Assembly (NCBI GenBank): GCA_958450365.1
Contig: CAUEEP010000893.1
Span: 831,501 to 895,500, forward strand
Origin: Mesorhabditis belari
Lineage: Eukaryota > Nematoda > Chromadorea > Rhabditida > Rhabditidae
DNA: 64,000 bases
Direction: 5' to 3'
Under the pieces are notes generated by a model, which ran no database searches, was not told where the DNA came from, and saw nothing but the letters and a program-made list of their open reading frames with translations. How positions within the stretch are numbered: the stretch's first letter is position 1; the number at the start of each line of letters is the position of its first letter. Below are positions 7,920-64,000 of this stretch, in pieces. Both the position numbers and the translations under genes were made by a program.

Positions 7920-8029
7920 GGTAGTTTTAGAAAAGTGAATATAAATTTTTTTTTTTGAATCTCCAATGATTTTATTTTGCAGAGATTGGCGACAAAGATA
8001 TCCCGTTTCCATATGTTATACACAAAAAT

Positions 8030-8320
8030 TGATATGACTCATCAAAAAAGAAAGGCTTATAGACAAAAGAGCTGTGTCTTTGTGTCTATTCTGTCAACTT
8101 CTCCGCGCCCAGTGGGCCATTTTAAATGACTTATGGTTAGTTTGGCTTAGAATTCCATCGAGTTATGCAAGTTTTTAAATAGAAGTTTTTAAATTTTCAA
8201 AAAACCAAAAGTGCCGAGACGGGCGGGAGTCAAACTCGGGTCATGTGGGCTAAAGACAAGTGCGATATATAAAAGAGCAGTGTCTCTCTGTTTGTCTGTC
8301 TTTTAATAAAACTGAAAGCT
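8030..8320. repeat. SINE-like repeat with tRNA-like B-box, copy 1
   Basis: Begins near AAAGGCTTATAGACAAAAGA and ends in a TATATAAAAGAGCAGTG / TCTGTTTGTCTG tract. On the minus strand it contains CCCGAGTTTGACTCCCG, close to a Pol III B-box. Near-identical to 19985-20275; related copies are at 15005-15165 and 19810-19985. tRNA-derived SINE ancestry is my inference. Confidence 0.55.
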
Positions 8321-8384
8321 TAACTGAATCACTAACCAAGTAAATATTCTTTACTAAATCCTTTACAGCAAGTTTTTCCTTCAG

Positions 8385-8677
8385 ATGCTCTCATATTCGG
8401 TGATCACCTTTGCAGCCTGGATTTTCTACGATATCATCCGCATTTTCATAAACGCCTTTTTCGATATTTTTTTGTTATTTCTATTCATTGAAATTCTCAA
8501 TACATTGCAACATTTTTGCTTTTATTTTGTTACCAGGTATGGTTGGAAACTTTTCTTTCCAATGAAATTATTTACAGCTTAATCACGGCTATCTGCTTGC
8601 GAAAGCCAAGAGAGGGCAAAATAAAGAGAAAAACAACGAATTCGATTCAATCGATACCTCTAACAACTGTGAATTGA
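8385..8677 (+). CDS. Small two-exon hydrophobic protein, member 1 of a new-looking family
   Basis: Exon 1 (8385-8536) begins at an ATG directly after a TTTTTCCTTCAG acceptor, which suggests spliced-leader trans-splicing or an upstream untranslated exon. It encodes about 50 residues that are almost all hydrophobic or aromatic (ITFAAWIFYDIIRIFINAFF, LLFLFIEILNTLQHF), enough for two membrane segments. A CAG/GTATGG donor and a TTTACAG acceptor bound a 41-base intron. Exon 2 (8578-8677) adds a basic tail (LITAICLRKPREGKIKRKTT) and stops. The total is 83 residues in frame. The copy at 20336 keeps both exons and the frame. Ungapped similarity to the ORFs at 16040 and 63362 covers residues 1-51. Function unknown. 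It is divergent to F-box paralogue 1. Confidence 0.6.
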
Positions 8678-8835
8678 ATGAATTTTGGCTTTAATTGGCT
8701 GAATCACAAAATTCACAATCTCAACTGATGCTTTGAACTTCTGTATTTCAAATCCTTATACACTGAATTTTAGGCATTCAAATGATATTAAACTGGGCTA
8801 GAACGAAATTGCTGGACAGATCACACTCATGGCTA

Positions 8836-8925
8836 ACAAGGAAAGGTCATAGGGTTGAGGTAGCCAAATTGAAATGAACCATAAACCATACGATGCAGAA
8901 TTTTATGGGCATTTTCCCGTCCGTT
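8836..8925. mobile_element. Truncated left end of the tRNA-carrying foldback element
   Basis: Starts ACAAGGAAAGGTCATAGGG and follows the 20787 element through ATACGATGCAGAATTTTA, then diverges into ATGGGCATTTTCCCG. There is no right arm. Confidence 0.65.
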
Positions 8926-15549: not shown

Positions 15550-16035
15550 GTGTTGTTACAAGAAACAACGATTCTTTTTCAATATCGGGTGTAGTAGGGT
15601 TTGGAGAGGTCAACAACAGGACGACAGCATCAAAGCTGAAATTATCAAGTTTGTGGATTTTTAATTTCTAACTAAAATGGTTTTTTCATGATTAATCTTG
15701 TTTTTCTCACTTTTCGAAAGCTTCGAAAAGTTGGTGATTTCAATTAGACAATGTTAGATGGGATTTAGAGGAAAAATGGAAAGATCCCATTGGTTGAGAG
15801 ACGGCTCATGAAACAGGTAAAGCTCAATTTGACTTTAGAATTAGCTGTTTTACTTTAGCCGTCAAAAATGGCCAAAGAAAGAGATTGAACTTAGCTTTAT
15901 AGAACGATCTTGTTCTTGAAGTTTCTGGCAAAATGACAAGCTATTCAGCTGAGAAACGTTCAAAAGAGATAATTAGAAACTCAAGCCAAAGACTTCGTTG
16001 CAAAAGCACAAACTCCATTATATTTGTTTTAAACT
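15550..16035. other. Non-coding stretch
   Basis: AT-rich sequence with no persuasive exon. It precedes the small hydrophobic ORF at 16040 and may hold its upstream signals. Confidence 0.4.
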
Positions 16036-16039
16036 TTAG

Positions 16040-16207
16040 ATGGTCTGCAGCTCTATCATCGACTTTATCAACTATGTAGTCACGAACATATTGTTCATCG
16101 TTTTAAATTCTTTCATAGGACCCCTTTTGGAAAGTCTTTTCCTGCAAGTTGTCAGCAAATTGCAAATGGCTCTCTACACGTTTGGCCTCAGATTAGTGAA
16201 GGAGTGA
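16040..16207 (+). CDS. Small hydrophobic protein, family member 3
   Basis: The ATG follows an AACTTTAG acceptor directly, as in the other members. The 55-residue frame (MVCSSIIDFINYVVTNILFI... ending FGLRLVKE) aligns without gaps to the members at 8385 and 63362. Shared positions are Ser5, Val/Ile6, Ile7, Asn23, Leu30, Leu33, Gln42 and Arg51. Unlike members 1 and 2 there is no donor at codon 51 and the frame closes four residues later, so the basic second exon is lost or never existed. Two hydrophobic segments are likely. Function unknown. Confidence 0.5.
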   Translation: MVCSSIIDFINYVVTNILFIVLNSFIGPLLESLFLQVVSKLQMALYTFGLRLVKE

Positions 16208-16974
16208 TCGGTTAAGTTCACCTAAATACTATCTCTTTGCTAATTTCTAAAAACTTTGCCATGTCTAGAGTTTCTTGGCTCTCCAAACAAAAGTGTTCGG
16301 ACCTCTTTTTCTTAGTTAGGAAGAGTTTTTGGTCAATGCGATGGTCCTCTTTAACTTAACACTTTTAGTTTTGTGAAATTCGATCGTTGAATGCATCAAA
16401 AGCGGCTCCAAAGGGAAACGAATCAAAAAGCGTGCTTTTCAAATAAATGAATATAATATTTGCTCCAAATGACTCATCTTTGAGTAGACCGTTTCAAATC
16501 TTCAAAAATTCCTTCGTTTCAGAATTTCGAATGCGATTTTCTTGAAAAAAGCAACAAGAAGAAAAAACGAGAAAAGCACATCACCTCAATCGACAAACGT
16601 TTCATTAATTTCCTCTAGTCAAATGCATCAACCGATCACTTCTAAGTGTATTCGTTGATTTATAATGTGAAGATTGGTAGTCAGTTTTGTCACTCAATAA
16701 CGCAATTCCAATAAGTTGAAGTTCATAATTTCGATCAAACGAATCACAATTCAATTGCAGCTTTCCAGCATTCATCTGTTTTGAGCAAAAAATCTTTGTT
16801 CTTTGTCTTTTCAGCCTCGAAAACAGAGTTTATTCTCCTGATTGCCAATTATTGGATTGAAGCAAGCGTTTGTAAAGGGAAACGCAATTCGCCGCATTCC
16901 ACAAATAGAATCTTTCTTTAGACTCATAATTAGGGCGAAGTTGTTAAAGTTCAAAGAAATATATGGTTCAACTT

Positions 16975-18402: not shown

Positions 18403-19278
18403 TTGCAAATACCAAATTCAGTTATCCATTGGTATTTGTGGAATTTCTCGATGACAAATTGGCAACTCTTGAATCAACCAATCGAAATCGATTGGGATTT
18501 TTCCTCCAAAGTTCAAGATATAATGAAGATTAGCGCTTTTTTGGTAAGATTTTTACTATTAGAAGAGTTCCGTGAAAGATCTCTCTTGTTCAGATTCTCT
18601 TTGTAAGTATTTTTGTGAACGCATTCGCAATCACAGCACCATTATTGAATACTTTGTTGGCTTTTCAAGTTCGGTAAGCGATTTTGCTAGATCAGCTAAA
18701 ATCAAATTCCAGAATACTGGCCACAAGTGAATCCTTTTTTCAAAATTCTTTTCGCGATTTGCTACTTGATCGACAATATTTGCCAGCTTCCAAACATGAT
18801 CGATGTCTTTCAGTTAGTTGTGTCATTTGTTTTCCGATCTCTAAACATCGATCGATGTTCTAGTTGTCATCAATCGCTCACCAAAACACTCAAAAGTCTT
18901 GTCAATGACTATGTTTGGTACGGAGCTTTTCGGGAGATCGCTCAAACCACTCAGCTACTCATCTCATTGGGGTAGGTGAGAAAGCTGGACTTGTGAATCT
19001 CTTAGTGGCCAGTTAAATGTAAATTTCAATAATACAAATACCCATTCAGCCGCTTCTTTGCCGTTTCTTTTGACGGTCAATACTTTTGGTTGGTCTCGAA
19101 ATGGCCATTTGCTCAAATGTTGTTCCCATGGTTCATTCAAATTGGCATCGATCAGATCAATCTTCACGCATACAATGATATATTTTATGGCTATTGGCAA
19201 TATTTTGGAATCTATATTCCATATTTTCTCATGTGCTCGTTAGATTTCATGACGAATCGGAGAATGAAAATTGTATGA
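18403..19278 (+). pseudogene. Nematode seven-transmembrane receptor-like gene, truncated
   Basis: Several hydrophobic exons on the plus strand: ILFVSIFVNAFAITAPLLNT; then from about 18727 FFKILFAICYLIDNICQL, a Cys-rich loop, and YGAFREIAQTTQLLISLG. That last piece is spliced in phase (GG/GTAGGT; CATTCAG/C) to RFFAVSFDGQYFWLV and WFIQIGIDQI. The REIAQ...LISLxRFFAVSF pattern resembles the end of TM3 and loop 2 of nematode chemoreceptors (usually NRF; here GRF). The frame stops after FMTNRRMKIV, before TM6-7, and an upstream junction is out of phase. It is probably a truncated receptor. The subfamily cannot be named. Confidence 0.4.
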
Positions 19279-19809
19279 GGAAAAGGCTGGCTTGAAAAGT
19301 TCAAAGAACTTTTTTTTTCAGTAACAATACTATAAAGTTAAAGCTAAAGTATTTATCTAATGATTTTAGTTGAAAAAAGACGGGACAATGAATGTGAATC
19401 GAGTGGAAAGTTTGCTGATGATACAGGCGAGTCGATACTAATTTGAATAAACGTTCCAAAAAGTGCCCTTGCCAGCATAATTTACCGTAATCCGGATGGT
19501 GCGGTAAACGGATAGTAAATTAAAGTTAAAGTAATACGGATAGTACCGTAAAATCGACTAGTTAAGAAACAGTCTACAAAAAGGAGTCTTGACTTGTCGC
19601 AGAAATGTCTTGGTTGGGTTACTTTAGCTCCAGTGGCAGTCAGTTACCATAATCCGGATGGTACGGTCACCATAAAGAATACCGTAACATCAATCAGCTT
19701 TATGTAAAACCCTACAAAGACGAGGCTTGGCTTGATAGAAGGATCTGGATTGGGTTACGGTAGCCAGGGCAGGCTTTGGAGTGCTCGACTGAAACAGTTT
19801 CATGCAAAC

Positions 19810-20275
19810 TATTATATATAAAAGACTGTCTGTCTGTACGCACTACTCAGCCCCCAGAGGACCATTTTAAATGATTTATGGTTAGTTTGGCTTAGAATTC
19901 CATGGAGTTATGCAACATGTTTTTAAATTTTTAAAAACCCAAACGTGCTGATGCTGGCTGGAGTCGAACCCGAGTCGTATGTTATACACAAAAATTGATA
20001 TGACTCATCAAAAAAGAAAGGCTTATAGACAAAAGAGCTGTGTCTTTGTGTCTATTCTGTCAACTTCTCCGCGCCCAGTGGGCGATTTCAAATGACTTAT
20101 GGTTAGTTTGGCTTAGAATTCCATCGAGTTATGCAAGTTTTTAAATTTCAAAAAACCAAAAGTGCCGAGACGGGCGGGAGTCAAACTCGGGTCATGTGGG
20201 CTAAAGACAAGTGCGATATATAAAAGAGCAGTGTCTCTCTGTCTGTCTGTCTTTTAATAAAACTGAAAGCTTAAC
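19810..20275. repeat. Two adjacent SINE-like repeats
   Basis: The unit at about 19810-19985 carries, on the minus strand, a perfect B-box (GGGTTCGACTCC). The unit at 19985-20275 is a near-identical copy of 8030-8320. They are fused head to tail at GTTATACACAAAAATTG. Confidence 0.55.
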
Positions 20276-20895
20276 TGAATCACTGACCAAGTAAATATCC
20301 TTTACTAAATCCTTTACAGCAAGTTTTTCCTTCAGATGCTCTCAAATTCGGTGATCACCTTTGCAGCCTCGATTTTCTACGATATCATCCGCATTTTCAT
20401 AAACGCCTTTTTCGATATGTTTTCGTTATTTCTATTCATTGAAATTCTCAATACATTGCAAAATTTTTACTTTTATTTTGTTACCAGGTATGGTTGGAAA
20501 CTTTTCTTTTCAATGAAATTATTCACAGCTTGATCACGGCTATCTGCTTGCGAAAGCCAAAAGAGCGCAAAATCAAGAGAAAAACAACGAATTCGATTCA
20601 ATCAATACCTCTAACAAATGTGAATTGAATGAATTTTGGCTTTATTTGGCTGAATCACAAAATTCACAATCTCAACTGATGCTTTGAACTTCTGTATTTT
20701 GAAACCTTATACACTGAATTTTAGGCATTCAAATGATATTAAACTGGGCTAGAACGAAATTGCTGGACAGATCACACTCATGGCTAACAAGGAAAGGTCA
20801 CAGGGCTGAGGTGGCCTAATTGAAATGAACCATAAACCATACGATGCAGAATTTTACGCGTATTCCGATGCTGCTTTCTGTGTTTGGCAAAATGA
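19975..20895. repeat. Segmental duplication C, copy 2
   Basis: Direct, highly similar copy of 8015-8945. Here the foldback element is complete (to 21377), so this copy probably reflects the ancestral arrangement. Confidence 0.85.
20336..20628 (+). CDS. Small two-exon hydrophobic protein, family member 2
   Basis: Same structure as member 1: exon 1 at 20336-20487 begins with ATG directly after TTTTTCCTTCAG, a 41-base intron runs from GTATGG to CACAG, and exon 2 at 20529-20628 carries the basic tail. The total is 83 residues in frame. Replacements relative to member 1 are few (for example MLSN versus MLSY, DMFSLFL versus DIFLLFL, KPKERKIK versus KPREGKIK), and no stop or frameshift has accumulated in either exon. 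Confidence 0.6.
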
Positions 20896-32461: not shown

Positions 32462-35131
32462 ATGGAAATCGTTCAACGTTGGATTGGACGAGGATCGTTT
32501 GGGGATGTCTATGAATTGGTTGGACATAATCCGTGAGTTGTTCAATAGTTGGTGGGAGTAGAAACGTTACTATTGAAGTATTTAGCTTATTTACTCAATT
32601 GAATCATTTCCAGCTGTTCGCAAAATTGTTCACTGTGGAACAAAGGCTCAACAAGATGCCTTCAAAAAAGAATACGAAACGTTGCAAGAAATGGAACATC
32701 CAAATATTGTGGAATTTCTTCGGACTGAACAACTTGATGATGACCGATTTGGAATTGTTATGGAATATTGTCGATTGGGAGATTTGAAAAAAGGTAGCTT
32801 GATTGATGGATAAGATTATTAATATCTATTCAGTAATCCTTGATTCATCCGTTATCTACACAATGAACACAGTTGTCTGTTGGGGAGAACAATTATTTGG
32901 AGCTGTTGATTATATGTATCGAGAAAAGAAATTGGTACATCGAGACATCCAACCAGAGAAGTAAAAGTTCTGTGCAATAGAATTCAGTAAAAGTTTAGCA
33001 TTCTTGTCACTGATGAATGGATTCTGAAGATTGGGGATTTCGGATTGACGCGAATGATTGAAAAAACCTGTACTGTGGGTACGGTTGTTGGAACAGAACG
33101 ATATATTAGTCCGCCACAATTGGATGAAACGCAAGATCCATGGGAACAACGGAAAACTCAACAAGTAACATTTCATTAAGTTTTCGAATAAAGGATTACC
33201 TATTTCCAGGATTCCCATCGAAATGACGTGTACAGTCTTGGGCTCACAATGTGGGAAATCATTGAGAGAAGGTGAGTTTTCCTAAATTGATTCGCCTTAT
33301 TGAAACGTTTTAGGAATGTATTCTCTGAATATGGAAATCGTTGTTTCGATCGTAATGGCTTTTTGGATGACATTATTCTGAAAAGATTCAAAGAATTGAG
33401 CAGGCCCGAATGTCAAGATAAACTGGGGGAAATTGTTCAAAAGTTGGTGAACAAATGTTGAAAATTTCCATAAAGATTGGATAAAAAATTCTAGATGCAC
33501 AAACTTCAATCGTTCATTACGGCCAAATGCTCAAGAAGTTGTCAAGAGTTTGGAAAATTTCAGAAAGGTGTGTGATTAGATCATCTAAACAAATGGCGAT
33601 TTAGGAACAAGAATTGATCGATAATTTAAATTTTTTGCCTTTAAAAGAAACAAAACAAAAAGAATTAATCAGGCCAATTGGATTTAATGGATCAGAAGAA
33701 AAAATTCCAGTAGTTGAACCCTTTGATCTCGCAAAGAATTTTGGGGAATCTTTAACGGATAAAGTGGTGACATTTGAAAAACTCCTTTACATTGAAAGTG
33801 CCCTTGACACCGATATTCCTTTAATAAAAGAACTAAAAAGGAGATTTTCTGAGTTTGAAACCAAAGAAATGAAGGAAACATTTCTTCAAGAAATTCCATC
33901 ACTTATTCGAGAAATGACAGAAAAGGATTGGCATATTGATGAATGGGAAGATTTCGAGGAGGAATTGGAACTGATTGATTCCAAAGAGCAACAATTTTCA
34001 AATATAAAAAGCATTCACGAGCTTTTTCGTCTCCTAATTTCGAATGACATTGGTCGACAGCATCGGCTATTCAGCTTGGTTTGCGACCATGGTGCAATAC
34101 CATATAACGACAAAATTCTGGGTTGGTTTTGTCCATGGGTTCAGTCTCCAATCATTCAATTCCTCGTTGAGGATTTGCAGAAACAGAAACAAAATCGATA
34201 CACAACGCGTTTCATCGTCGACATTTATATCTCATTATCAAGTGGTGAAGAGTTTTTTGCCATTGGTGGGAAACTTTACAAAAAAGACTTTATAACACAA
34301 CTGAACTCCTACCGAAATATCAGTAATGGCAGTCAATCGGTAATAGAATCGGGAAACAAAGCAAGAAATTCTAATGCTTTGAAAGATTATGATGAACTGC
34401 ATTTTTCTCATCAAGAATTAATCGATATAAATCAAATGAGTCAACTTGCAACTAAGGTTTTGCGTAGAGTCCAGAAAATTGCGGAAATATTCTCCGATCG
34501 GTTTATTCCGATAGAAAATGCTGATAAAAATGAAATACCAATAATCCCAAAATTTCCTGAACAACAATCAGAATTTCCTTCAATCATTCCCAATTATCTA
34601 TTCCAAATTCGAAATCCACCACGAGAACTTTGCAAACACGAACCAAAATGTGAATTAGAGCACTTACAGGGTTTTTTTTTAGTTGATTTATATGAATGTA
34701 CTACGGACGATTATCGTAAATATCTGGACAGCTTTTGCAAATTTCTGGCACTTTTAGAACTGACTTATCTAGGTGCAGAAGTTGAACAAGAAAGCCGTTT
34801 TTCCCAAATCCTCACAAACTGCCCGTGGAAGAGGGACAAAGTGGGTTTTCTGATATTACTCGATCATCCAAATAATTATGAAGACAATGAAAAGATTCCA
34901 TGTATGACAGTTGATCGGACATTTCTAATGATACCTGTTCAAGAAATTGTGAAAGCACTGCAAAAGACACCTCCCAACCGTCGAACTTATACTCGAGTTA
35001 ATGGTGATTTCACGGTCCAGCTTTTAGACTCAGAATTCTATCCCATAGAAAATAAATGGATTGATCTAAAAAACATAGGTGCTGTTAAGCCTCGTTTACG
35101 ACATTTGTATCGCAGAATTCGAAGATGGTGA
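32462..35131 (+). CDS. Protein kinase homologue with atypical catalytic loop and long C-terminal extension
   Basis: Exons: 32462-32532 (glycine loop IGRGSFGDVYEL), about 32614-32792 (VRKIV with the ATP-anchoring Lys; FKKEYETLQEMEHPNIVEF with the helix-C Glu; IVMEYCRLGDLKK), about 32838-32960 (LVHRDIQPEN), then ILVTDEWILKIGDFGLTRMI (DFG present), DVYSLGLTMWEII and PNAQEVVKSLENF. A final exon at 33605-35131 adds about 508 residues with no domain I recognise. HRDIQPEN has Gln where active kinases have Lys, and the APE motif is replaced by SPPQ. The exon 1/exon 2 junction is off by one base with the obvious GT-AG sites, while later junctions are in phase. It is a likely pseudokinase or a gene damaged at its 5' end; the 1.5 kb open last exon argues for recent or present function. 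Confidence 0.7.
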
Positions 35132-40071: not shown

Positions 40072-40521
40072 GTGTCCAAAGTTATGCTGTGTCAGTTAAG
40101 GATTGGGTTATCAATTGATATCAGGGTTGTTTCAGAAATCGAGCTGATCAAGCCAAGTCAAGCTAAAGTTAAGTCGGGTTCAAGTCAAGCCAAACCAAAG
40201 TTTAACCAGAAGAATGCTAAGGCCAAGCAAGCCAATGCCAAGCAAGCCAATGCCAAGCAAGCCAATGCCAAGCAAGTCAAGACCAAGCAAGCCAATGCCA
40301 AACAAGCTAAGGCCAAGCAAGCCAATGCCAAACAAGCCAATGCCAAACAAGCTAAGGCCAAGCAAGCCGATGCCAAGCAAGCCAATGCCAAGCAAGTCAA
40401 GGCCAAGCAAGCCAAGGCCAAGCAAGAAGTTTCTATCTTCTCTGTATCAAGCAAAACAATCAAGATTCAAAACTTGAAAATCAATCTATCATTAGAAACG
40501 GGTTTCCCCAGAGATCAATGA
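40072..40521 (+). other. ORF through the minisatellite (KQANA repeat)
   Basis: A 149-residue plus-strand frame consists of a short unique N-part, about fifteen KQANA/KQAKA pentapeptides and an unremarkable C-part ending at 40521. Open frames on the other strand and in another frame are equally long, as expected of an in-phase repeat. I see no initiation or splice context and doubt it is a gene. Confidence 0.2.
40195..40430. repeat. 15-base minisatellite (AATGCCAAGCAAGCC)
   Basis: About fifteen tandem units of 15 bases, varying mainly at AATG/AAGG and GCC/GTC. The unit length is a multiple of three, so open frames persist on both strands. The plus frame gives (N/K)AKQA repeats. Confidence 0.9.
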
Positions 40522-43174: not shown

Positions 43175-43320
43175 ATGATCTCCAACTCAGTGATCGCTGG
43201 TCGATTCTCACTTACCTCAATCAATTCGTTTCCAATTTGCTTTTCGGCTTTAATCTACAGATTCTTTGCGACCAATTTTTCCTTATGAATCCATATTTTC
43301 TTTTCTGCTTGGTGAGCTGA
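43175..43320 (+). pseudogene. Small hydrophobic protein family, frameshifted member 4
   Basis: ATG directly after CCTTTTCCAG, as in other members, then ISNSVIAG. Compared with the copy at 63362 it has lost several bases after codon 8 (GCTGGTCGATTC versus GCTCTTTTGGACACGATTC), so the original frame (LNQF, FFLMNPYFLFCLV) is displaced. It sits just downstream of the K+ channel gene. Confidence 0.5.
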
Positions 43321-45784: not shown

Positions 45785-48281
45785 TTATTTGTTTGCTGGT
45801 TTCTGGCAGATATATCGTGCATTCCCCTGTCGTGCCACTTCTTCTGTTGCATGGTAGAAAATGATTTTCTGGTTGATATTTGTCGACTCATAGCACATCT
45901 AAAGAAATAAGTTCTAAAGAAAAGACACAAAATATCTAACCTGCCATGGAAATTATCTCCCCTAAAGTTCATTTTAAGAAAAATGATCCTCTAGATCCCG
46001 ATCCTCAAAGTGTAACCTTACGGTCAATACGGTAAAATGAATGAGACCCTGTGTGTCGATATTTTTTCCAAATCAAGGGGCGGGGCTATTCCTAGAACCG
46101 ATTCTCCAAAGCAAATCAAACAAAAGTCAGATTTCAGGCGAAAATCGGGATAGACTTAAAATTCGAGACCAAAGCTTTTTGGAACAGCCCTGCAAAAACA
46201 TTTGTAAGGAAGAAACGAACCGAATAATAGCGATTTTCGGTGTCCCTATTTGGCTTAAAGAAATCATCCGGAGTTCCATCACTGTATGTCCTCTTCCCAT
46301 CCACAAGCCGCAATCCGAACCAAACGTAGAAATCGGTGTCGTTGCATCCATTTTCTGGAGTCGCTTCTGGGTTATTTTTCGGAAACTCGAGCTGATCATT
46401 TCTAAAATTATTTTCGATTGAAGTCTAAATCAGATGGTCTAACAGGGCACCCAACAAACAAATCCTACGGGCTCTTCGAATCTCCTTCCCTTCAGTTAAT
46501 CGCCTGTCTCCCCGCTCCCTCCAAACACCAACCTTTGTTCCCTTGCCCTGTACATCATTTCTCTTTCTTTGCTCTCTTGAAAAACTTCTATTCTATACAC
46601 TTTTGAGGTCCGCGTCAGATTCTCCATTCTCAAAAGTTGTTGGAAAGTTTATACCTTTCTCTTAATAGTTTTATGCACTTTCCCAAAAAAAGCAATAGTC
46701 AAAATCGACTTTACTTCTAATGTCAAAATGGCTTTTTCTCAATTTCTTGAATTTGGCTGGATGCCATAGTAAATCTTTACTTTTCATAAATTCCAGCTCA
46801 ACTTTTGAATGGATCGACGCCAAGTGGGCATCGCTTCTTGTACAGTCCTCCTCGGCTGTTTCCCACTTATACTTGTTCAACTCTCCCTCGTCATTGTAAG
46901 TGAATTCCTCAAAAAATACAATAACATGACTGTAATTTTTGTTGCTTACATAATAGAAGTAGCAGGAGTCAGTTTCCTTTAAATACATCCACCCAAGACG
47001 GCATTTCCCTTTGAATGATCGAGGGACTGGACAAGCGGAGGGCTTTTTATCGGAGTTTCTGGAAATTTTACTTCATGAACGTTGAAAGAAAATTTTATTA
47101 GTCTTATCTAATTAAAAAATTTTTTAAGAATAAGTTTAATTCCTCACTTTTCCGACTCCAGGAGCACAACTTTTTTCTTTGTTTCGACAAGTTGAGCTTC
47201 TGTTGTACTTCTAAAGTTTACAAATAAATAAAAAAGTTACATTTGGATGAGAAATAACTAAACTGTGACCAAATTCGCAATTGAACTTCTCACTTTTCTG
47301 TTTCCAATCTCTCAATAAGTGTTATTGCTTTTTTGTGCTCAGCATCGACTGTGAGTCTAAATTCGATTTTCATTTTCTTTTTCTTCTCCACCCACTTCTC
47401 CTCCTTTAGCGCCTTGTTATTGGCCACACAGATGGTCAGATTTTGTTTGAAGACTTCACAATCACTTCTAAACAAAAGAAAAACTGATTTGATGAATCAC
47501 TTTTTTTAATCTCTAATGGGCTTTCCAACTATCATTTTTTTAATCTCAAAAGAGCTCATTGTCATGGCTTTATGGACATTTTACATATGTAAGAAAGGGA
47601 CTGAAAGGAAAATAAAGGAAAAAAGAAATTTCAAAAACCGACTTGCTGTCGATGAGAAGCGTCAACCTCTCCCTAAAAAGTTGATTTTTGATTTCATTGT
47701 TCAAAATCTTCACCCACGCATTAGCCCGGCAAATCTTCAACAGGTCAACTGCTTGTTTTTCATCATCTTGTGAAGCAGCCCTCAATTTTGGATTTTTTAA
47801 GAAACTCTAACAAAAACTTACAAATTTCGAGCCTTTCGTGACAATGGACTGTGAAATGGTGTCGAGTTGAAGCTGGAATTTTGGCTTTCACAAGTGATTT
47901 GATGGAAATTCGGCTAAGTTTGATCAAATCTTCAATTTTCTTGGACTTTTTAATCAGACTTTAATAAGACTAGTTTTCTGATTCAAATTAAAAATTCAAA
48001 TCGAAATCTTACTCGAAATTATAAGACTTTAATAAGACTATTCCCTGGTTCAAATTAAATTTTTAAATCGAAACCTTCCCAAAAATGACTCACCTCTTTT
48101 CAACAAGTAAGGTACCAATAATTCCGAGAAAAATTCCAATGAATGTAGCAAACAAAAGACTTTTGGTGTTATACGTTTTTCGAGTGTGGGTTTTTGATCT
48201 AGAATTTACGAAAAAGTGAAAAAGTGAAACTGATTCAACTTACGGTGATTGGGCCGGCAATTCGAATTGTTCAAAACCCAT
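45785..48281 (-). CDS. Type II transmembrane C-type lectin, tandem copy A
   Basis: In-phase N-terminal exons: 48281-48244, 48198-48094, 47467-47294, 47210-47148, then from 47058. A cytoplasmic tail (MGFEQFELPAQSP) and signal anchor (SLLFATFIGIFLGIIGTLLV) lead to a stalk (SDCEVFKQNLTICVANNK, WVEKKKKMKIEF, HKKAITLIERLETEK) of coiled-coil character, then a C-type lectin domain: CPVPRSFKGKCRLGWMYL, DSCYFYYVSN, WETAEEDCTRSDAHLASIHS, FYVWFGLRLVDGKRTYSDGT PDD. The last exon (45898-45785) reads CYESTNINQKIIFYHATE and GNARYICQKPANK-stop. The domain's middle splice junctions are unresolved. No EPN/QPD sugar motif seen. Such lectins are often immune or surface proteins, ligand unknown. A BTB-like ORF sits in one intron. 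Confidence 0.75.
47570..47850 (-). other. Intronic BTB/BACK-like ORF fragment, copy A
   Basis: In the lectin's second intron the minus frame encodes DEKQAVDLLKICRANAWVKI, then LNNEIKNQLFRERLTLLIDS. The spacing resembles the end of a BTB domain (LLxxAxxxxVxxL...KLxLLxDxx). Conserved in the third lectin unit (59498-59812), absent from the second. Could be an exon of another gene or an alternative exon; the direct lectin exons splice in phase without it. Confidence 0.35.
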
Positions 48282-51737: not shown

Positions 51738-53941
51738 TTATTTGTTCGCGGGTTTCTGGCAGATATATCGTGCATTCCCTCGTCGCGCCACTTCTTCTGT
51801 TGCATGGTAGAAAATGGCTTTTCGGTTGATGTTTGTCGACTCATAGCACATCTAAAGAAATAAGTTCCAAAGAAAAGACATAAAATATATAACCCTGTCA
51901 TGGAAATTATCTCCCCTAAAGTTCATTTTAAGAAAAATGAATTATGGTTCTCTAGATCCCGATCCTCAAAGTGTAACCTTGCGGTCAATATGGTAAAATG
52001 AGATCCTGTGTGTCGATAATTTTTCCGAATAAACAAAAAAGATGTTATTTGCGGGGCTGTTCCTTGCGGAGCCGATTCTCCAGAGCAAACCAAGCAAAAG
52101 TCAGATTTCTGCCGAAATCGGGAATAAACTTAAAATTCGGGACCAAAGCTCTTTGGAACAGCCTTGCAAGAACATTTGTAAGGAAGAAACGAACCGAATA
52201 ATAGCGATTTCCGACGTCCCTACTTGTCCCAACGAAATCATCCGGAGTTCCATCACTGTACGTCCTCTTCCCATCCACACGCCGCAATCCGAACCAAACG
52301 TAGAAATTGGTGCCGGCGCATCCATCTGCTGGAGTCGCTTGTGGGTTATTTTTTCGGAAACTCGAGCTGATCATTTCTAAAATTATTTTCGATTGAAGTC
52401 CAAATCAGATGGTATAACAAGCACCCAACAAACAAATCCTACGCGCTCTTCGAATAATCTTTTCTTCAGTTAAGCCTGTCTCCCCTCTTTCTCCAAACGC
52501 CAACCTTTGTCCCCTTGCTTCCCCTAAACCCTGTCCAATTGTCCAATTGTCCATTCTCAAAAGTTGATGAAAGTTGATACCTTTCTCTTGTTAGTTTCAT
52601 GCACTTTCCCCAAAAAAGCAATTGTCAAAATCGACTTTACTTCCGATGTCAAGATGGCTTTTTCTCAATTTCTTGAATTCAATTCGGCTGGATGCCATAG
52701 TAAAGCTTTACTTTTCATAAATTCCTGCTCAACATTTGAATGGATGGACGCCAAGTGGGCACCGCTTCTTGTGCAGTCTTTCTCGGCTGTTTCCCACTTA
52801 TACTTGTTCAACTGTCCCTCATCATTGTAAGTGGAAATGTTAAAATGGTTTTTTCTCAATTTTTTGAATTCGGCTGGATGCCATAGTAAATCTTTACTTC
52901 TCATAAATTTCCGCTCAACATTTGAATGGATCGACGCCAAGTGGGCACCGCTTCTTGTACAGTCCTCCTCGGCTGTTTCCCACTTATACGTGTTCAACTC
53001 TCCCTCGTCATTGTAAGTGATTTCCTCAAAAAATACAATAATATAACTGTAATTTTTGTTGCTTACATGATAAAAGTAACAGGAGTCAGTTGCCTCTAAA
53101 TACGTCCACCCAAGACGGCATTTCCCTTCAAATGATGGAGGAACTGGACAAGCCGAGGACTTTTTGTCGGAGTTTCTGGAAATTTTACTTCCTGAACATT
53201 TCAAGTTTAATTCCTCACTTTTCCGACTCCAAGAGCACAACTTTTTTCTTGGTTTCGACAAGTTGAGCTTCTGTTGTACCTCTAAAGTTTACAAATAAAT
53301 AAAAAAGTTGCATTTGAATTAAAAAAAAGATTATGACCAAATCCTCAATTGAACTTCTCACTTTTCTGTTTCCAATCTCTGAATAAGTGTCTGTGCTTTT
53401 TTGTGCTCAGCATCGGCTGTGAGCCTAAATTGGATTTTCATTTTCTTTTTCTTCTCCACCCACTTCTCCTCCTTTAACACCTTGTTATTGGCCGCACAGA
53501 TGGTCAGATTTTGTTTGAAAACTTCACAATCACTTCTAAACAAAAGAAAAATTGATTTGACGAATCATTTTTAAAAATCTCTAATGGACTTTCCAACTAC
53601 CATTTATTTTATTCTCATTCTCCAAAGAGCTCATTGTCATGTTCTTTATGAACATTTTACATTTTTCTTGGACTTTTATAATAAGATTTTAATAAGACTA
53701 TTCTCTGGTTCAAATTCAAAATTCAGATTGAAACCTTCCCAAAAATTACTCACCGCTTTTCAACAAGTAAGTTGCCAATAATTCCGAGAAAAATTCCAAT
53801 AAATATACCAAACAAAAGACTTTTGATGTTATACGGCTTTGGAGTGAGGGTTTTTGATCTAGAATTTAAGAAAAAGTGAAAAAGTTAAACTGATTAAACT
53901 CACGGTGATTGGGGCGGCAATTCGCATTGTTCAAAACCCAT
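51738..53941 (-). CDS. Type II transmembrane C-type lectin, tandem copy B
   Basis: Same architecture as copy A: tail MGFEQCELPPQSP, signal anchor, stalk (SDCEVFKQNLTICAANNK), then the lectin domain (CPVPPSFEGKCRLGWTYLEA, FYHVSNKNYSYIIVFFEE, WETAEEDCTRSGAHLASIHS), the WFGLRRVDGKRTYSDGTPDD exon near 52200-52320, and the last exon CYESTNINRKAIFYHATEEV...ICQKPANK-stop at 51738. About 180 bases coding for TYNDEGxLNxYKWETAExDC to WHPAE are duplicated in tandem (52653-52832 and 52842-53016) in an open frame, a possible internal repeat or a broken exon. The intronic BTB-like ORF of copies A and C is missing. Probably functional or recently so. Confidence 0.7.
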
Positions 53942-58137: not shown

Positions 58138-60098
58138 TTATTTGTTCGCGGGTTTCTGGCAGATATATCGAGCCATCCCTCGATTATTTTCTGGTTGATA
58201 GTAGTAAATGGATGTCTGGTTGATGTTTGTCGACTCATAGCACATCTAAGGAAATAACATCTTAAAAACATAAAATATGGAACCCTGCCATGGAAATTAT
58301 CTCCCCTAAAGTTCATTTTAAGAAAAATGATTTATGATCCTCTGGATTCCGATCCTCAAAGTGTAACCTTGCGGTCAATACGGTAAAATGAATGAAACCG
58401 TGGGTGTCGATAATTTTTCCAAATAAACAAAACAGATGTTATTTGAGGGGCTGTTCCTAGAGCCGATTCTCCAGAGCAAACCAAGCAAAAGTCAGATTTC
58501 AGGTGAAAATCGGGGATAGACTTAAATTCGAGACCAAAGCTTTTTAGAACAGCCCTGCAAAAACATTTGCAAGGAAGAAACGCACCGAATAATAGAGATT
58601 TCCGGTCATACTTGGTACTTCCGTCCCAACGTAATCATCTGGAGTTCCATCACTGTACGTCCTCTTCCCATCCACACGCCGCAATCCGAACCAAACGTAG
58701 AAATCGCTACCGTTGCATCCATTTTTTGAAGTCGCTTTTGGGTTATTTTTTCGGAAACTCGAGCTGATCATTTCTAAAATCATTTTCGATTGAAGTCCAA
58801 ATCAGATGGTACAACAGGGCACCCAACAAACAAACCCTACGGGCTCTTCGAATCTTGTTCTCTTCAGTTAGGCCTGTCTCCCCTCTCTCTCCAAACACCA
58901 ACCTTTGTCCCCTTGCTTCCCATAAACCCTGTGCAACATCTCTCTTTCTTCGCTCTCATGAAAAACTTCCATTCTATACACTTTCGAGGTCTGCCTCGAA
59001 TTGTCCATTCTCAAAAGTCCATGGAAAGTTTATGCCTTTCTCTAGTTAGCTTTATGCACTTTCCCCAAATAAAAACAATTGTCAAAATCGACTTTACTTC
59101 CGATGTCAATATGGCTTTTTCTCAATTTCTTGAATTCAATTCGGCTGGATGCCATAGTAAAGCTTTACTTTTCATAAATTCCTGCTCAACATTTGAATGG
59201 ATGGACGCCAAGTGGGCACCGCTTCTTGTACAGTCTTTCTCGGCTGTTTCCCACTTATACTTGTTCAACTGTCCCTCATCATTGTAAGTGGATTCCTGAG
59301 AAAATACAATAATGTGACTGTAATTTTTGTTGCTTACATGATAGAAGTAGCAGGAGTCAGTTTCCTTTAAATACGCCGACCCGAGACGGCATTTCCCTTC
59401 GAATGATTGAGGGACTGGACAAGCGGAGGACTTTTTATCGGAGTTTCTGGAAATTTTACTTCGTGAACGTTGAAAGAATATTATATTAATCTTCTAATTA
59501 AAAAAATTTTAGAAAAGGGAAAAGGAAAATAGAAATTGCAAAAACCGACTTGCTGTCGATGAGAAGCGTCAACTTCGCCCTGAAAGGTTGATTTTTGATT
59601 TCATTGCTTAAAATTTTCACCCACTCATTAGCCCGGCAAATCTTCAACAGGTCAACTGCTTGTTTTTCTTCATCTTGTGAAGCAGGCCTCAATTTTGAAT
59701 TTTTAAAGGATTCTAACAAGAACTGACAAATTTCGAGCCTTTCGTGACAATGGTCTGTGGAATGGTGTCGAGTTGAAGCTGAAATTTTGGCTTTTGTTTT
59801 TGATTTGATCAAATCTCCAGTTTTCTTGTACTTTCTTATAAGACTTTAATAAGACTATTCACTGGTTCAAATTAAAAATCCAAATCGAAACCTTCCCAAA
59901 AATTACTCACCTCTTTTCAACAAGTAAGCTACCAATAATTCCGAGAAAAATTCCAATGAATATACCAAACAAAAGACCTTTGGTGTTATACGGTTTTGGA
60001 GTCAGGGTTTTTGATCTAGAATTTACGAAAAAGTGATAAAGTTAAACTGATTAAACTTACGGTGATTGGGGCAGCAATTCGAATTGTTCAAGACCCAT
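58138..60098 (-). CDS. Type II transmembrane C-type lectin, tandem copy C
   Basis: The third unit. MGLEQFELLPQSP is followed by the anchor exon (GIFLGIIGSLLVEKR, about 59912-60016). The two short stalk exons seen in A and B (SDCEVFKQ...; STTEAQLVE...) are not present; in their place the intronic BTB-like ORF remains. The lectin domain is present (CPVPQSFEGKCRLGSAYLKE, DSCYFYHVSNKNYSHIIVF, WETAEKDCTRSGAHLASIHS, then FYVWFGLRRVDGKRTYSDGT PDDYVG), as is the last exon CYESTNINQTSIYYYQPE... RYICQKPANK-stop. The lost stalk means either a shorter protein or a decayed gene. Exon phases around the gap were not resolved. Confidence 0.6.
59498..59812 (-). other. BTB/BACK-like ORF fragment, copy C
   Basis: Intact minus frame: ASTRHHSTDHCHERLEICQF, then DEEKQAVDLLKICRANEWVK, then ILSNEIKNQPFRAKLTLLID. 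Several replacements relative to copy A leave the frame open, which hints at past selection. Family assignment is tentative. Confidence 0.35.
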
Positions 60099-63361: not shown

Positions 63362-63517
63362 ATGATCTTCAACTCTGTGATCGCTCTTTTGGACACGATT
63401 CTCATTTACCTCAATCAATTCGTTTACAATTTGCTTTTCGGCTCTAATCTACCAATTCTTTGCGTTCAATTCTTCCTTATGAATCAATATCTTCTTTTCT
63501 GCTTGGTGATTAGGTGA
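63362..63517 (+). CDS. Small hydrophobic protein, family member 5
   Basis: The ATG lies directly after CCCTTTCCAG. A 51-residue hydrophobic frame (MIFNSVIALLDTILIYLNQF, VYNLLFGSNLPILCVQFFLM, NQYLLFCLVIR-stop). The final Arg codon and stop coincide with an AG/GTGAGC donor at exactly the position where members 1 and 2 splice to their basic tail, so a second exon may exist, though I could not find one. Ungapped match to members 1-3 at Ser5, Val6, Ile7, Asn23, Leu30, Leu33, Gln42 and Arg51. The frame is intact, unlike its neighbour copy at 43175. Confidence 0.5.
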   Translation: MIFNSVIALLDTILIYLNQFVYNLLFGSNLPILCVQFFLMNQYLLFCLVIR

Positions 63518-63699
63518 GCTGGGTAAAAACGGCTACTTTGGCTTGTTAAAAAGATAAAAAGGGTGGAGTAGGCTGTCAGAATAAGTCAGTAAATAAAAAA
63601 TATGACACAATAATGTTTTAAATAGAATTTTAGCGTGATCAGCGGATTTGCGTTGCGGAAGAGATCACCATGGAAAGCCAAGCGAACCGTCACGGTAAC

Positions 63700-64000
63700 A
63701 GCCACGCCGAGAAACTAAACAACAACAACAACAACAACAATAACAATAACAACAGCTACAGTAAAATAACGTAATTTACATTATTTGCCTAATCTCTCAT
63801 AGATTTGGATTGTATGTACTTAGTTTGTATCGAAATTTTCAATTTCCTAGCGTTTTTATGGGTCGGCTTGTACTCTCATTTCCGAACGACTTTCGAACAA
63901 TAGAAATACTCCCCGAAGAGATTCAATAAAAATTGACTAGAAAAAGCGAAAGATATCAATAGTTTTCATAGCATCAAGAGCTTAGAAAATTTTGTAGGCA
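63700..64000. repeat. Inverted copy of 48784-49240
   Basis: The reverse complement of this end (TACAAAATTTTCTAAGCTCT, GAAAACTATTGATATCTTTC, AGAGTACAAGCCGACCCATA, TTAGGCAAATAATGTAAA, then the GTT tract) follows the sequence at 48784-49240, which carries a ~150-base insertion. A third, direct copy of its first part is at 60880-61010. Confidence 0.8.

What the first reader, a model, noticed from the sequence alone, without database searches (positions are those of the whole stretch)
8385..8677. A family of tiny hydrophobic proteins that begin exactly at a splice acceptor
Five ORFs in this window (8385, 16040, 20336, 43175 frameshifted, 63362) start with ATG immediately after a pyrimidine-rich AG. 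They align without gaps over about 51 residues: Met1, Ser5, Val/Ile6, Ile7, Asn23, Leu30, Leu33, Gln42, Arg51. Members 1, 2 and 5 have a splice donor at codon 51. Members 1 and 2 splice in phase to a basic tail of 33 codons including stop. I know of no named family with this layout. Either these are secreted or membrane micro-proteins made from trans-spliced mRNAs, or an exon family of a gene I cannot see.
Basis: partly seen in the sequence, partly recalled or inferred. Interest (0 to 1): 0.85.

Follow-up and report, generated by a model that had tools for sequence, protein, structure and literature searches.

The report
Last membrane exons of worm receptors
The "tiny hydrophobic proteins" are most likely the final membrane-spanning exons of a large family of receptor-like genes in a free-living roundworm, several of them broken-off fragments, rather than a new kind of micro-protein.

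Summary
The sequence observation is real: five aligned 51-codon blocks, each starting ATG right after a pyrimidine-rich AG, from a family with 103 genome matches at E<=0.01. The micro-protein reading fails. Same-strand exons lie upstream: an RFxA(V/I)SFDG exon in 55 of 89 fetched loci, a short exon ending ExLLMxQ in 61, either in 65; the two antisense controls gave 0 of 89. Public Mesorhabditis belari model P0001 splices such exons in phase into the block's "Met1". In L075 the short exon runs into the block without an intron, Val replacing Met. The block is an internal exon, probably helices 6-7 of a divergent seven-helix, chemoreceptor-like gene; a small intron and last exon give the basic tail. 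Pfam and PDB searches found no receptor match, and the likeness to Srx is weak.

In the window, 20336 keeps several upstream exons (frame changes in one). 16040 is decayed. 8385, 43175 and 63362 lack upstream exons; 8385 lies in a 902-bp copy of the 20336 gene's 3' end. Contig lengths indicate M. belari. Interest: low to moderate.

The parts
8385..8536 (+). Block 1 (m1): TM6-7-type exon, orphan copy
   Evidence: hmmsearch 62 bits, own sequence in the profile; donor GTATGG at 8537; no upstream receptor exon found in 4 kb; the only TM4-5 exon with E<0.1 in the window is at 19045
8578..8677 (+). m1 last exon, basic tail, after a 41-nt intron
   Evidence: TTACAG acceptor, in-phase tail LITAICLRKPREGKIKRK...; exon-2 score 26.2, own tail in the matrix; 0 of 281 control sites reach 18
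8012..8913 (+). Segment duplicated at 19978-20864 (95% identity); carries only the 3' end of the gene
15682..15726 (+). m2: possible remnant of the end of the TM4-5 exon (FMINLVFLTFRKLRK)
   Evidence: weak HMM match, E 0.11; translation
15769..15816 (+). m2: short IL3 exon ...PLVERRLMKQ
   Evidence: HMM E 1.4e-4 in the window; this sequence was not in the training set
16040..16191 (+). Block 2 (m2): TM6-7-type exon; donor position reads AT, not GT, in both haplotypes
16523..16658 (+). m2 probable last exon (ISNAIFLKKATRRK...)
   Evidence: score 13.0; 2 of 281 controls reach 13; shares NAIFLKK with L027
18588..18674 (+). m3 gene: hydrophobic exon (ILFVSIFVNAFAITAPLLNTLLAFQVR)
   Evidence: HMM E 2.5e-16, but this sequence is one of five that trained the HMM
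18713..18972 (+). m3 gene: further hydrophobic stretches; the reading frame changes inside this exon
   Evidence: boundaries by eye
19045..19269 (+). m3 gene: TM4-5 exon (RFFAVSFDGQYF...CSLDFMTNRRMK)
   Evidence: HMM 92.5 bits, E 3.8e-27, sequence in the training set; next best in the window E 0.11
19370..19426 (+). m3 gene: short IL3 exon (LKKDGTMNVNRVESLLMIQ)
   Evidence: HMM E 8.8e-8, sequence in the training set; the bases after CAG read GCGAGT, so a GC donor or a lost one
20336..20487 (+). Block 3 (m3): TM6-7 exon of the same gene
20529..20628 (+). m3 last exon, basic tail
43175..43314 (+). Block 4 (m4): frame-shifted relic; no good last exon seen within 3 kb
63362..63513 (+). Block 5 (m5): TM6-7-type exon, orphan copy
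   Evidence: hmmsearch E 6.3e-11; no upstream receptor exon found in 4 kb
63634..63718 (+). m5 last exon (SVISGFALRKRSPWKAK...), after a 120-nt intron
   Evidence: score 18.8; 0 of 281 controls reach 18

Best explanation
Each block is the penultimate coding exon (about two membrane helices) of a multi-exon serpentine, seven-helix, chemoreceptor-like gene. Shown from sequence: the order [hydrophobic exons]-[exon RFxA(V/I)SFDG...LDFxT]-[short basic exon ending ExLLMxQ]-(phase-0 intron)-[51-codon block]-(phase-2 intron, mostly 37-55 nt)-[last exon SxI(S/N)xxxLRK + basic Ser/Thr-rich tail], on one strand. 'Met1' is a residue at a phase-0 exon junction and the AG before it is an ordinary cis-splice acceptor. 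Inferred: the protein sits in the membrane as a seven-helix receptor with a cytosolic basic tail and senses chemicals in neurons like other nematode serpentine receptors. Inferred: the family grew by local duplication; duplications that carried only the 3' end left orphan blocks such as 8385, 43175 and 63362.
For: Upstream TM4-5 exon at E<=1e-10 in 55 of 89 loci, short exon at E<=1e-3 in 61 of 89, either in 65 of 89, within the 1.0-2.5 kb held. The same tests gave 0 of 89 antisense upstream, 0 of 89 antisense downstream and 1 of 89 sense downstream. Divergent members without nucleotide-level flank similarity have it too, e.g. L020 and L040. In L075 the short exon and the block are one open frame (...RVDRRLAKQ-V-ICSSSVYF...), no intron and no Met. 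Six loci have AG followed by another codon in place of ATG (L014 AGG, L027 and L064 ACG, L028 and L029 ACA, L081 ATT). P0001, a public M. belari model, joins MDFFTFLKLRK + LNKSKVSMAERRLMVQ + block. P0002, a public 82-aa 'partial' model that begins at the block, also has the TM4-5 exon 1.0-1.2 kb upstream (L099, E 7e-26). Joined TM4-TM7 pieces of 11 members share invariant R,G,Q,D,L,Q,M,S. Codon positions vary 3>1>2. pN/pS is 0.12 (L041/L046), 0.19 (L021 group) and 0.48 (24 large-clade loci). The profile aligns in the expected register with an Srx gene of this genome, E 0.011, 0 of 100 block shuffles and 0 of 60 residue shuffles as high. The residue before RF, after splicing, is Asn in 9, Ser in 21, Cys in 4, Tyr in 1 and unclear in 1 of 36 loci (my count); NR is the Srx/Srxa mark in PMC2576165.
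Against: No Pfam receptor family matches joined pieces of 12 members (3 sequences at E<=1, 2 and 8 at E<=10; L032 twice). No PDB receptor matches the TM4-7 profile (one chance hit, E 1.8). Against the window's own Srg gene only 27 columns align, and 1 of 100 block shuffles scores as high. Seven helices were not shown by a structure; the AlphaFold model covers only the last 82 residues. 24 of 89 loci show neither upstream exon in the 1.0-1.5 kb held. P0002 starts at the block, as the micro-protein reading would have it, and P0003 joins an unrelated upstream stretch to the middle of a block. AATAAA is not enriched after the stop (10 of 54 against 12.4 shuffled). No transcript data.
Confidence: 0.86

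Rival explanations
1. The blocks are stand-alone 78-97 residue two-helix membrane micro-proteins made from SL1-trans-spliced two-exon mRNAs; the upstream exons belong to another gene.
For: YAG|ATG in 78 of 89 loci and GT at the phase-2 position in 72 of those 78; public model P0002 starts exactly at the block; SL1 22-mer (up to 1 mismatch) at 655 places against 0 for the reversed pattern; AlphaFold helices 2-26 and 28-58, pLDDT 69.
Against: Upstream exons on the same strand in 65 of 89 loci; the short exon is fused to the block in L075; P0001 splices them together; P0002 is labelled partial and has the upstream exon.
Confidence: 0.05
2. Orphan copies only (8385, 63362 and similar 3' fragments) have been re-used as short trans-spliced genes, while the parent family is a receptor family. 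This does not exclude the best explanation.
For: 8385 and 63362 keep both exons and splice sites, and their alleles on C677 (L002, L012) encode the same proteins. Eight large-clade copies with neither upstream exon found in about 1 kb still have pN/pS 0.60, against 0.48 with the exon, though L050 there is the allele-like partner of L087, which has it.
Against: 8385/20336 differ by 0 synonymous and 6 non-synonymous changes in the first 50 codons, and the 63362 clade has pN/pS 1.18, as expected of drifting fragments. The four other clade copies scored apart from the allele L012 (L013, L015, L016, L017) have no last exon scoring above 4 within 600 nt.
Confidence: 0.06
3. The parent gene is a multi-pass membrane protein that is not a chemoreceptor (for example a transporter).
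For: No Pfam or PDB receptor match.
Against: (N/S)RFxA(V/I) after a hydrophobic stretch, LDxxT..K, ExxLxxQ before the next helix, family size, clusters and fragments fit nematode serpentine receptors (layout partly recalled); in-register match to an Srx gene.
Confidence: 0.12

Closest known systems
Nematode Srg superfamily of serpentine chemoreceptors, Srx family (Pfam PF10328)
   Same: R-F-x-A-[IV] after the third hydrophobic stretch, LD...K, then E....Q before the next one (alignment); N before R after splicing in 9 of 36 loci; clustered multigene family with broken copies (PMC2576165, passages).
   Different: No PF10328 hit on joined pieces of 12 members, and none of the 36 PF10328 places listed for this genome coincides with a family place. 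The NR that PMC2576165 calls nearly invariant in SRX/SRXA is not so here: Ser in 21 of 36.
Srg-type receptor on the minus strand of this window (about 27.2-25.0 kb; PF02118)
   Same: Same general layout and an LDLLT..K motif.
   Different: Profile comparison aligns only 27 columns, at E 0.018.

Membership tests
Stand-alone trans-spliced micro-protein | No coding exon upstream of the ATG | tested here: not met
   Upstream exon(s) in 65 of 89 loci; antisense 0 of 89; continuous frame in L075
Stand-alone trans-spliced micro-protein | SL reads at the acceptor | not testable with these tools
   No RNA data held; SL1 exists in the genome
Nematode serpentine receptor (broad sense) | Multi-exon gene with several hydrophobic stretches, the block being the last two | tested here: met
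   Exon order; the number seven was not established
Nematode serpentine receptor (broad sense) | Significant sequence match to a named receptor family | tested here: inconclusive
   Pfam none; PDB none; hhalign to one Srx gene E 0.011, 0 of 160 controls as high; to one Srg gene E 0.018 over 27 columns, 1 of 160 as high
Srx (PF10328) | Match to PF10328 | tested here: not met
Srx (PF10328) | Nearly invariant NR motif in helix 3 | tested here: inconclusive
   After splicing Asn in 9, Ser in 21, Cys in 4, Tyr in 1, unclear in 1 of 36 loci; criterion from PMC2576165 (passage)
Nematode serpentine receptor (broad sense) | Expression in chemosensory neurons / GPCR signalling | not testable with these tools
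   none

The most novel reading that the evidence does not exclude
A large serpentine-receptor family outside the Pfam-modelled ones, whose 3'-end fragments have in a few cases become short trans-spliced two-helix membrane proteins that could pair with and modulate the full receptors.
Probability: 0.04. Interest if true: 0.6.

Novelty: new member of a known kind. Interest (0 to 1): 0.22.

Why it matters
It corrects a tempting micro-protein reading: an exon that starts with a conserved Met after a phase-0 intron looks exactly like a trans-spliced start. It also points to a sizeable receptor-like family in Mesorhabditis belari that Pfam does not recognise in the 12 members tried. Three protein-database searches found three M. 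belari entries, all 'partial'; those searches admit only proteins of about 45-170 residues, so longer, full receptor models in this or other worms would have been missed.

Tried and rejected
I held the micro-protein view until; the evidence up to there (conserved donor, conserved last exon, purifying selection, P0002) seemed to favour it, and I had set P0001 aside as a faulty model. The upstream conservation scan and the translation of that stretch overturned this.

A link to the inward-rectifier K channel genes beside m4 and m5: rejected, the other PF01007 places (26 listed in all) are not near family members. Transposon origin: of 163 flank ORFs of 17 loci, 104 were scanned; hits were DDE_3 (2), RVT_1, HTH_23, HTH_29, Utp25_C and UT (1 each). 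Solved structures: nothing convincing for the two-exon profile or the TM4-7 profile. Rfam in the window: none. SL1 by Rfam model: inconclusive, the control rang nowhere; the pattern search settled it. Positive selection on the window copies: not claimed (Fisher p about 0.7). Upstream divergence (0.33) mixes loci with and without homologous upstream DNA, so I do not use it. Paper searches: 'nematode/small transmembrane proteins/gene family' 0 papers; 'nematode/microprotein/trans-splic/transmembrane' 1 unrelated; 'Mesorhabditis/gene family/lineage-specific' 1, on parthenogenetic genomes.

Full report
Where it is. The window is C672:831501-895500 of a 207.6-Mb, 714-contig assembly. The nematode SL1 22-mer occurs at 655 places with at most one mismatch, and its reversed control at 0. 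Three database proteins, all of Mesorhabditis belari, match the family. The longest contigs given for two of them, 47,189 and 904,679 bases, equal the lengths of C362 and C671, where the same sequences lie (L041, L049), so I take the genome to be M. belari. The assembly carries both haplotypes here: C677 mirrors C672, and 8385 and 63362 encode the same proteins on both.

The observation. All five blocks are there, with the hydrophobic 51-codon frame and the YAG directly before ATG; a phase-2 GT donor is in three. Beyond the window, (query 16040) gave 92 places at E<=10 and (a distant relative as query) 103 at E<=0.01. I analysed 89 fetched loci, about 71 after joining alleles; of the fetched loci I left out L019 (the 43175 block, a partial match) and L036 (a chance match), and not every place listed was fetched. 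Of the 89, 78 have AG|ATG at the block start, all YAG, and 72 of the 78 have GT at the exact phase-2 position. The AG before the ATG and the T of the GT were not part of the protein queries; the G is the third base of codon 51.

The last exon. A scoring matrix for the first 11 residues of exon 2 reaches >=18 in 61 of 78 loci (my count from the listing) and in 0 of 281 control AGGT sites in the window. Among 37 loci whose tails are not identical to those used in the matrix, 20 reach 18. Of 67 loci scoring above 8, 57 have an intron of 37-55 nt. In the window, 8385, 20336 and 63362 have a convincing last exon. 16040 has a probable one (13.0; 2 of 281 controls reach 13), but its donor reads AT in both haplotypes. 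43175 has a frame-shifted block.

The turn. In nine loci of the largest clade, the stretch from about -530 to -150 upstream of the block is roughly as conserved as the block itself. Translated, it reads ...RFMAVSFDGMFYKYTTKHTLLQF...MDFFTFLKLRK, then a splice donor, then ...SKAASRAERRLMIQ, then a donor, then the block in phase 0. P0001, which I had dismissed as a faulty model, joins exactly such pieces. An HMM of the RFxA(V/I)SFDG exon, iterated on the loci, finds it upstream in 55 of 89 loci at E<=1e-10. The short exon is found in 61 of 89 at E<=1e-3, both in 51, either in 65. Antisense upstream and antisense downstream: 0 of 89 each; downstream sense: 1 of 89 for each exon, presumably a neighbouring copy. 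Some of these sequences trained the HMMs, so the antisense and downstream controls carry the specificity. In 15 loci translated the order is the same. In one of them, L075, there is no intron: the short exon and the block are one open frame, with Val where Met stands elsewhere. Six loci without ATG have AG followed by another codon at that place (AGG, ACG, ACA or ATT). Where enough flank was held, further hydrophobic exons come before these.

What it is. The order of hydrophobic exons, RFxA(V/I) after the third stretch, LDFxT..K before a short basic loop, ExLLMxQ before the next helix, and a basic tail is the layout I know of nematode serpentine receptors (recalled, apart from the NR and PF10328 notes, read as passages of PMC2576165). 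Pfam gave no receptor match for joined pieces of 12 members and the PDB none for the profile. A comparison with one Srx gene of the same genome (L098) aligns 96 columns in the expected register at E 0.011, with 0 of 100 block shuffles and 0 of 60 residue shuffles as high. With the window's Srg gene only 27 columns align (E 0.018), and 1 of 100 block shuffles and 0 of 60 residue shuffles do as well. The residue before RF sits on a splice junction; after splicing it is Asn in 9, Ser in 21, Cys in 4, Tyr in 1 and unclear in 1 of 36 loci, so the NR of Srx/Srxa occurs but is not the rule. The receptor class is likely but not proven, and the family is not Srx by the Pfam test.

The five copies in the window. 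20336 has at least four upstream exons (about 18588-19426), but the frame changes inside one of them and the short exon is followed by GC, so it may be a pseudogene or the assembly may err there. 16040 keeps the short exon and perhaps a remnant of the one before it, and has lost its donor. 8385, 43175 and 63362 have no upstream exon within 4 kb; the only TM4-5 exon with E<0.1 in the window is that of 20336. 8385 lies in a 902-bp, 95% copy that stops about 370 bases upstream of the block. The copies in the window show no sign of constraint: 0 synonymous and 6 non-synonymous changes between 8385 and 20336 in the first 50 codons (3 and 9 over the whole frame, Fisher p 0.72), and pN/pS 1.18 in the 63362 clade. 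Members elsewhere do: 0.12, 0.19, and 0.48 in the large clade; eight large-clade copies with no upstream exon found in about 1 kb have 0.60.

Structure. AlphaFold2 on P0002, with five sequences in the alignment, gives helices 2-26 and 28-58 and a loose tail (mean pLDDT 69, pTM 0.34). That fits two membrane helices but cannot tell a micro-protein from the end of a receptor.

Papers: PMC10456839 (one section and passages), PMC2576165, PMC11347140, PMC13370393, PMC9169325, PMC10506718 and PMC7953838 (passages); the others only as search listings with the start of the abstract.

Noticed in passing
window 45.5-60.9 kb, minus strand: Threefold array of about 6-kb repeats; three ORFs (46674-47072, 52668-53288, 59125-59493) match C-type lectin PF00059, the first just under cut-off; at 52681-53019 a 186-bp piece is tandemly doubled.
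   Followed up: partly
window 41.0-42.4 kb and 62.2-62.6 kb, plus strand: Two inward-rectifier K channel genes (PF01007/PF17655), each about 0.8 kb before a block (43175, 63362); the pair looks like one tandem duplication.
   Followed up: yes
window 25.0-27.2 kb, minus strand: Srg-type chemoreceptor gene (PF02118 22.2 bits, cut-off 22).
   Followed up: partly
window 33605-35131, plus strand: 508-codon open frame without Pfam match; similar DNA at C677:963817-965363, 86%.
   Followed up: no
window 40222-40426: 13.7 copies of a 15-bp unit inside a 149-codon open frame, pentapeptide-repeat match below cut-off.
   Followed up: no
L027, L028, L029 (C692): Three family copies have ACG or ACA where the block otherwise has ATG, with a last-exon match; tolerable if Met1 is no start codon.
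   Followed up: partly
L048, L049, L051, L054, L057, L058 (C671 about 511-639 kb, C685 1.07 Mb): Large-clade copies whose flank similarity to other copies ends some 55-150 bases upstream of the block and that show neither upstream exon in about 1 kb: more 3'-end fragments; L058 has a stop in the block.
   Followed up: partly
L075 (C659): Short exon fused to the block without the phase-0 intron, Val in place of Met1.
   Followed up: yes
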